From: a virus
Virus record (IMG/VR): IMGVR_UViG_3300036820_000490
Span: 1-42,807 of that record
Strand: one strand, 5' to 3'
DNA length: 42,807 bases
The notes under the pieces were generated by a model that had not been told where the DNA came from, searched no databases, and worked only from the letters and a program-made list of their open reading frames with translations. The first letter of the stretch is position 1. The number at the start of each line of letters is the position of its first letter. Made by a program: the position numbers and the translations under genes. This document shows positions 2,270 to 2,469 of this stretch, piece by piece.

Positions 2270-2318
2270 GCACCCGTAGCTCAATTGGATAGAGCATCGG
2301 TCTACGGAACCGATGCTC
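2270..2318 (+). other. attL: attL: 5' half of tRNA-Arg plus palindromic core
   Basis: Bases 2270-2313 are identical to the first 44 bases of the complete tRNA-Arg at 42039, ending at the 3' side of the anticodon stem. Around the anticodon loop lies a perfect 10-7-10 inverted repeat (GAGCATCGGT, CTACGGA, ACCGATGCTC; 2292-2318). In the right copy the last arm reads ACCGAAGGTT, as a tRNA requires. The symmetric arm at the left is therefore phage-derived, and the crossover most likely falls in the 7-base loop. Confidence 0.9.
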
Positions 2319-2442
2319 GGCCACGCGAGCTGACAAACAAAAAAGTTGGCCATTCTCCATGGACAACCCGGTCCTAATCCGCGCCGGCCGTTTCGTTTCC
2401 GCCGGCAAGCCGGCGCGAAATTCGGATGGCTTTTTCGGGCTT

Positions 2443-2469
2443 GAGCATCGGTTGTACAGACCGATGCTC
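2443..2469. repeat. Second 10-7-10 palindrome with the same arms as attL
   Basis: A perfect inverted repeat with arms GAGCATCGGT and ACCGATGCTC, identical to the attL core arms, but with spacer TGTACAG in place of CTACGGA. It lies 151 bases inside attL. Tyrosine recombinases bind such arms and cut at the ends of a 6-8 base spacer, so this could be an extra integrase binding site. The different spacer should prevent productive strand exchange with the att core. It is not a tRNA fragment: no D or T arm surrounds it and the loop lacks U33. Confidence 0.75.

What the first reader, a model, noticed from the sequence alone, without database searches (positions are those of the whole stretch)
2292..2469. 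Two 10-7-10 palindromes with identical arms and different spacers beside attL
Both sites have arms GAGCATCGGT/ACCGATGCTC; spacers are CTACGGA (att core) and TGTACAG. The inferred attP core is a perfect palindrome, while attB is not. The second site has the format of a recombinase core but should not recombine with the first. It may bind integrase to control direction, repress nearby transcription, or be a trap or relic site with its own partner elsewhere.
Basis: partly seen in the sequence, partly recalled or inferred. Interest (0 to 1): 0.72.

Follow-up and report, generated by a model that had tools for sequence, protein, structure and literature searches.

The report
Second integrase-type palindrome beside phage attachment site
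A prophage of a probable planctomycete host carries, next to the DNA site where its integrase inserts it into a host tRNA gene, a second perfect copy of the integrase's recognition palindrome with a different middle; distant relatives that target other tRNA genes carry the equivalent pair re-tuned to their own tRNA, so it is very probably a real, conserved part of their integration machinery.

Summary
GAGCATCGGT-N7-ACCGATGCTC occurs twice: at 2292-2318 (attL core, spacer CTACGGA = anticodon loop of tRNA-Arg ACG) and at 2443-2469 (spacer TGTACAG). Chance expectation is zero.

Relatives decide what site 2 is. Seven phage contigs in IMG/VR encode homologous integrases (28-45% identity). In four (G001, G004, G005, G006), targeting tRNA-Arg, tRNA-Ala or tRNA-Met, a 10-7-10 palindrome lies 89-107 bp from the crossover on the integrase side. 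Its half-sites match the half-site predicted from each phage's own tRNA target. That tRNA stem ranks first (G000, G001, G005, G006) or second (G004) of 1,024 possible stems, and 7 bp is the best of ten spacings in all five. Three relatives fail the test.

The spacers differ in every phage, even between phages sharing a target, so site 2 is not a shared alternative attachment site. The integrases lack the lambda-type arm-binding domain.

Best reading: a second, core-type integrase dimer site in attP/attL that does not recombine with the core and acts as an accessory element, replacing arm-type sites. Integrase recognition is strongly inferred; the regulatory role is not shown. A dif/loxP-like self-recombining site is not excluded. 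New variant of a known kind.

The parts
2270..2313 (+). tRNA-Arg(ACG) 5' fragment at attL, identical to 42039-42082 (44 bp direct repeat)
   Evidence: sequence; ARAGORN finds the complete tRNA only at 42038-42113
2292..2318 (+). attL core, 10-7-10 perfect palindrome; left arm from the tRNA, right arm ACCGATGCTC from the phage
2302..2308 (+). 7-bp overlap CTACGGA = anticodon loop of tRNA-Arg(ACG), inferred crossover region
   Evidence: anticodon-loop rule for tyrosine integrases (PMC8371274)
2443..2469 (+). site 2: second core-type palindrome, inferred integrase dimer site, centre 151 bp from core centre on the integrase side
2453..2459 (+). spacer TGTACAG of site 2; differs from the att overlap
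2834..3106 (+). Cro/C1-type HTH regulator gene following site 2 (neighbour, not shown to be part of the system)
5937..7082 (+). tyrosine recombinase (integrase) of the element, core-binding plus catalytic domains only; longest start at 5901
   Evidence: PF00589, PHROG integrase, model and structural alignment, alignment A2
42039..42112 (+). complete tRNA-Arg at attR: phage-carried 5' half joined to chromosomal 3' half
42061..42087 (+). attR core GAGCATCGGT-CTACGGA-ACCGAAGGTT, which has the same sequence as the inferred attB core

Best explanation
Site 2 (2443-2469) is a second core-type binding site for the element's own integrase: two inverted copies of the half-site that the integrase recognises in the 5' anticodon arm of its target tRNA, spaced by 7 bp exactly as in the att core. 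It lies in the P' arm, so attP and attL carry it and attB and attR do not. Its spacer does not match the att overlap, so it should not complete strand exchange with the core. I propose that it is an accessory element: it holds an integrase dimer about 90-150 bp from the crossover and so loads, stabilises or restrains the synapse at the core, doing for an integrase without an arm-binding domain what the P'-arm arm-type sites do for lambda Int. Shown: the sites, their positions, their covariation with the tRNA target across related phages, the lack of an arm-binding domain. Inferred: that the integrase binds there. Proposed: the effect on direction or efficiency.
For: (1) Arms of site 2 and core are identical over 10+10 bp with no homology outside, and chance is excluded. 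(2) Integrase homologues (28-45% identity, alignment A2) were collected, and each phage's half-site was predicted from the tRNA 3' half it carries (GAGCN + reverse complement of tRNA nt 39-43). The best 10-7-10 site in about 10 kb (42.8 kb for G000) lies at +151 (G000, 18/18), +89 (G001, 16/18), +107 (G006, 18/18), +104 (G004, 15/18) and +101 (G005, 14/18, tied with one other). (3) Against all 1,024 possible stems, the phage's own stem ranks 1, 1, 1, 1 and 2 (G000, G001, G005, G006, G004), and 7 bp is the best of the spacings 3-12 in all five. (4) Equal-width windows elsewhere in the same contigs never reach that rank, and neither does the other side of the core. (5) An automatic scan of all held loci for tRNA 3' halves returned only these relatives with rank 2 or better. 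(6) Spacers TGTACAG, GCACTTC, GGATCAT, GTCTGGT and GCCTCTG differ from each other and from the overlaps, including in the pairs that share a target (G000/G001 tRNA-Arg, G005/G006 tRNA-Met). (7) No arm-binding domain: in G005 the frame is closed by a stop about 43 residues before the core-binding domain; the window's first 39 residues are disordered in the model; structural alignment to lambda Int begins at its residue about 72; no arm-binding Pfam family is hit.
Against: No binding or recombination was measured. G008 has only a weak candidate (+294, 12/18, stem rank 158), G003 none, and in G002 the palindrome (GCGCCTCGGT-catgtag-ACCGAGGCGG) fits a tRNA-Arg-type half-site, not the tRNA-Val fragment beside it, where another integrase-like gene lies. 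Distances 89-151 bp are not in strict helical phase. Because site 2 is in both attP and attL, it cannot by itself distinguish integration from excision. G001 was found through its site-2 sequence, so only G004, G005 and G006 are unbiased. The host tRNA 5' halves were predicted, not seen, for all relatives.
Confidence: 0.65

Rival explanations
1. Site 2 is a private recombination site of the same integrase that recombines with another copy of itself (between phage genomes, concatemer units or tandem prophages), like loxP/Cre or dif/Xer, for multimer resolution.
For: Perfect symmetric arms in G000, G001 and G006 where most att cores are imperfect, a 7-bp spacing equal to the overlap, asymmetric spacers and free spacer sequence between phages are what a self-compatible site would show; the integrase lacks an arm-binding domain and the model aligns best with Xer, Tn1549, lambda and Cre structures.
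Against: A resolution site need not lie within 90-150 bp of the att core, yet all five do; at that distance it would compete with att. Site 2 is imperfect in G004 (7/10). No independent sign of dimer resolution was found.
Confidence: 0.15
2. Site 2 is an integrase-bound operator: integrase represses transcription from att into the left end of the prophage (int or the HTH gene), as IntS autoregulates from attL in KplE1.
For: Integrase autoregulation at attL is documented (PMC2951348); an HTH regulator gene follows site 2 in the window and an HTH-like reading frame follows it in G004.
Against: In the window int starts 3.4 kb downstream and in G006 about 1.6 kb, with other reading frames between; no sigma-70-like promoter was found by the simple scan around site 2. 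An operator would not need the exact 7-bp spacing, though a dimer site would.
Confidence: 0.12
3. Site 2 is a second attP core for another host target with overlap TGTACAG, or a relic of a former attP.
For: It has the format of a core.
Against: Spacers differ among relatives, even those with the same tRNA target; no tRNA remnant flanks it; TGTACAG or its complement does not fit an anticodon loop (no U33 in one direction, pyrimidine 37 in the other); arms are kept perfect and follow the current target. The host genome is not held, so a chromosomal partner could not be sought.
Confidence: 0.05
4. Site 2 acts as an RNA or DNA hairpin (terminator or processing signal) unrelated to integrase.
For: It folds as a stable hairpin (-10.6 kcal/mol as DNA, z -6.9).
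Against: No T run follows on either strand in the window and none was listed as terminator-like; a hairpin function would not explain arms equal to the att half-site, or covariation with the tRNA target.
Confidence: 0.03

Closest known systems
Tyrosine integrases that cross over in the tRNA anticodon loop (core sites = anticodon stem, 7-bp overlap = loop; PMC8371274)
   Same: The core at 2292-2318 follows this rule exactly; relatives do so in tRNA-Arg, tRNA-Met and tRNA-Ala.
   Different: A second 7-bp-spaced pair of the same half-sites lies 89-151 bp away on the integrase side.
Arm-less ('simple') integrases such as mycobacteriophage Brujita Int (PMC7194413 citing Lunt and Hatfull 2016; simple YRs in PMC8138268)
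   Same: Core-binding plus catalytic domains only; Brujita Int (5vfz) is among the structural matches.
   Different: Brujita is described as lacking arm-type sites and directionality factors; the present family has a second core-type palindrome. A quick palindrome scan around Brujita int/repressor listed palindromes but its att core was not delimited here.
Lambda attP P'-arm (arm-type sites for the integrase N-terminal domain)
   Same: Extra integrase sites on one side of the core, present in attP and attL and absent from attB and attR.
   Different: Lambda arm sites have a sequence unlike the core and bind a separate domain that is missing here.
Haemophilus phage HP1 attP
   Same: Integration in a tRNA anticodon loop; from memory (not verified in the library), its integrase has core-like sites outside the core.
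   Different: The same scan on HP1 attP found no second 7-bp-spaced site near its core.
loxP/Cre and dif/Xer
   Same: Short perfect palindromes with an asymmetric central spacer, bound by two protomers of an arm-less recombinase.
   Different: The same element also has an att core with another overlap; recombination at site 2 is untested.

Membership tests
Tyrosine recombinase (phage integrase) | PF00589 catalytic domain with conserved R...H-x-x-R/H...Y residues | tested here: met
   PF00589 above cut-off; TGLR, WRRTH, LDH and Tyr columns conserved in A2
tRNA anticodon-loop integrators | 7-bp overlap equals the anticodon loop and core arms overlap the anticodon stem | tested here: met
   attL and attR cores with CTACGGA loop of tRNA-Arg(ACG); tRNA 3' halves with intact loops in G001, G004, G005, G006, G008. 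The crossover point itself was not mapped
Arm-binding-domain integrases (lambda Int type) | N-terminal arm-binding domain of about 60 residues before the core-binding domain | tested here: not met
   At most about 51 residues, low-complexity and disordered, precede the core-binding domain in the window; in G005 a stop codon limits them to about 43; no arm-binding Pfam hit
Simple (arm-less) tyrosine recombinases | Core-binding and catalytic domains only | tested here: met
   phylogenetic placement among the subgroups of PMC8138268 not tested
Brujita-type arm-less, directionless integration system | Recombination needs only minimal core sites and no directionality factor | not testable with these tools
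   needs recombination assays
Integrase core-type binding site | Half-sites match the att core half-sites with 7-bp spacing | tested here: met
Integrase core-type binding site | Bound by the integrase in a footprint | not testable with these tools
   experiment needed
loxP/dif-like resolution site | Integrase-dependent recombination between two copies of the site | not testable with these tools
   experiment needed
Intrinsic terminator | GC-rich hairpin followed by a T run | tested here: not met
   no T run on either strand; not listed in the terminator scan

The most novel reading that the evidence does not exclude
One arm-less phage integrase serves two kinds of site that cannot cross-react because their overlaps differ: the tRNA-derived att core for integration and excision, and a private, perfectly symmetric loxP/dif-like site beside it for recombining phage copies with one another (multimer or tandem-prophage resolution).
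Probability: 0.15. Interest if true: 0.8.

Novelty: new variant of a known kind. Interest (0 to 1): 0.62.

Why it matters
Most phage integrases use a separate arm-binding domain and arm-type sites to load on low-affinity cores and to control direction; how arm-less integrases manage is an open question (PMC8138268, PMC7194413). A conserved second core-type palindrome that tracks the tRNA target gives a concrete, easily mutated candidate for that control. It also gives a practical rule: the palindrome reports the integrase's preferred half-site even where the att core is asymmetric, which helps to predict attB in uncultured phages.

Tried and rejected
Exact 10-7-10 pattern in viral and genome collections: no relative found. 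Single-protein searches with the integrase in viral contigs, phages and plasmids: nothing; the portal protein also found nothing. First peptide-derived DNA pattern had one codon too few and found nothing; corrected. L009 shares the GCATCGGT-N7-ACCGATGC motif but there it is a repeat upstream of many genes; treated as a separate phenomenon. Other hits of the relaxed pattern (L006-L008, L010-L014, L016-L023) show no integrase homologue and were taken as chance. Controls: phage 186 and HP1 attP show no second site near the core by the same score. Terminator and promoter explanations were examined and not supported. The structural comparison used Foldseek's own top chains only, so families absent from it are not excluded. 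Dual attachment site, relic and hairpin readings were rejected for the reasons given under the rivals.

Full report
THE OBSERVATION. 2292-2318 reads GAGCATCGGT-CTACGGA-ACCGATGCTC and 2443-2469 reads GAGCATCGGT-TGTACAG-ACCGATGCTC. A search with up to three mismatches finds these two and the attR core at 42061-42087; 100 shuffles give none. The flanks of the two sites share nothing beyond the 10-7-10 format.

THE ELEMENT. The window is an IMG/VR record and holds a prophage with head, portal, terminase and tail genes, bounded by a tRNA-Arg(ACG) 5' fragment (2270-2313) and a complete tRNA-Arg (42038-42113). The 44 bp 2270-2313 and 42039-42082 are identical, so the phage carries a copy of the tRNA 5' half. 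The overlap CTACGGA is the anticodon loop. The attP core inferred from the ends is GAGCATCGGT-CTACGGA-ACCGATGCTC, a perfect palindrome; attB reads GAGCATCGGT-CTACGGA-ACCGAAGGTT. The integrase is at 5937-7082 on the + strand (PF00589). The order is core, site 2, integrase. The host was not identified; the left flank and the integrase family suggest a planctomycete (my reading, not tested).

RELATIVES. The exact pattern is absent from viral contigs. The relaxed pattern GCATCGGT-N7-ACCGATGC gave 18 loci. One of them (L015, record G001) encodes a 37% identical integrase, carries a tRNA-Arg 3' half with the same loop CTACGGA, and has CAGCATCGGT-GCACTTC-ACCGATGCTG between that core and the integrase. 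Two DNA patterns from conserved integrase motifs then gave further homologues without reference to att sequences: G002, G003, G004, G005, G006, G008 and more distant ones. Alignment A2 holds eight integrases, 28-45% identical to that of the window.

THE TEST. For each phage I took the tRNA 3' half that it carries, predicted the 5' half-site of the target as GAGCN plus the reverse complement of tRNA nt 39-43, and scored every 10-7-10 position. Results: G000 tRNA-Arg, +151, 18/18. G001 tRNA-Arg, +89, 16/18. G006 tRNA-Met, +107, GAGCAGCGGA-GGATCAT-TCCGCTGCTC, 18/18. G005 tRNA-Met, +101, GTTCTGCGGA-GTCTGGT-TCCGCTGAAC, 14/18. G004 tRNA-Ala, +104, GAACTCAGCA-GCCTCTG-TGCGGAGCTA, 15/18. Among all 1,024 stems the own stem ranks first in G000, G001, G005 and G006 and second in G004; 7 bp is the best of the spacings 3 to 12 in each. 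Windows of equal width elsewhere in the same contigs, and the other side of the core, never reach the same rank. G001 was found by its site-2 sequence and is biased; G004, G005 and G006 were found by their integrase alone. G008 (weak candidate at +294), G003 and G002 fail. G002 has a palindrome GCGCCTCGGT-CATGTAG-ACCGAGGCGG with a tRNA-Arg-type half-site but lies beside a tRNA-Val fragment and another integrase-like frame. Phage 186 and HP1 show nothing comparable.

WHAT IT IS. A second palindrome whose half-sites change with the tRNA target, in step with the integrase's specificity, at the core's own spacing, is best read as a site for an integrase dimer. Its spacer differs from the overlap, and differs between phages with the same target (TGTACAG and GCACTTC; GGATCAT and GTCTGGT), so it is not a shared alternative target and should not exchange with the core. 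In G001 and G006 site 2 is perfectly symmetric whereas the core is 6/10 and 5/10, so site 2 may be the stronger site.

THE INTEGRASE. Only about 40-50 residues precede the core-binding domain; they are disordered in the model (residues 1-39, pLDDT below 50). In G005 a stop codon leaves room for about 43. Structural alignments to lambda Int begin at its residue about 72, after its arm-binding domain. Pfam finds PF00589 in all eight and no arm-binding family. It is thus a simple tyrosine recombinase. Such enzymes are a minority among phages (27 against 410 in PMC8138268), and Brujita Int, the best-studied case, is reported to lack arm-type sites and directionality factors (PMC7194413).

MECHANISM. 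I propose that site 2 replaces the P'-arm: a dimer held 89-151 bp from the crossover loads or steadies integrase at the core, or restrains it by a synapse in cis that cannot resolve because the overlaps do not match. It is present in attP and attL and absent from attB and attR. The step from sequence to binding is a strong inference; the effect on direction or efficiency is a proposal. The chief rival is a self-recombining dif/loxP-like site, which fits the symmetric arms and free spacers but not the constant nearness to the core. Autoregulation, as shown for IntS of KplE1 (PMC2951348), is possible but the integrase gene is 3.4 kb away here.

NOVELTY. No paper found in the held library describes such a second core-type palindrome; most subscription papers are not held, and from memory HP1 may have core-like integrase sites outside its core. 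I therefore file it as a new variant of a known kind.

Noticed in passing
window 42210-42560: Just right of the attR tRNA lies what looks like a frameshifted integrase N-terminus ('PSYRRHQPSGQAVVTIGGRDIYLGSWN...'), probably the remnant of another element at the same tRNA-Arg. Judged by eye; no family search was made.
   Followed up: partly
window 2270-2313 and 42039-42082: This phage carries the 5' half of the target tRNA, whereas relatives G001, G004, G005, G006 and G008 carry the 3' half; the restored tRNA here must be transcribed from phage DNA.
   Followed up: partly
L009 (record G011): About 15 copies (up to 3 mismatches, control 0) of a GCATCGGT-N7-ACCGATGC-like repeat in one 41.6 kb virus contig, several just upstream of minus-strand genes: probably a phage operator or promoter repeat.
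   Followed up: partly
window 8401-8871: Phage-borne CsrA-like regulator (PF02599, PHROG CsrA-like).
   Followed up: no
window 13261-13947: Protein with an RNA polymerase alpha C-terminal domain match (PF03118) and no PHROG match; possible transcription takeover factor.
   Followed up: no
window 34968-36308: Protein with a ParB-like N-terminal part and a DNA methyltransferase part.
   Followed up: no
L055 3725-4563 and 7556-8641: Record G002 seems to carry two different integrases (the first judged by eye), the second homologous to that of the window, with a tRNA-Val fragment beside the first.
   Followed up: partly
L055 4919-5080 and L062 (minus strand) around 4490-4660: After the palindrome, G001 and G002 share an AATAAGTTGG motif and a CCCGCCCGGG...CCCGGGCGGG-T(n) terminator, so this stretch is homologous in the two phages.
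   Followed up: partly
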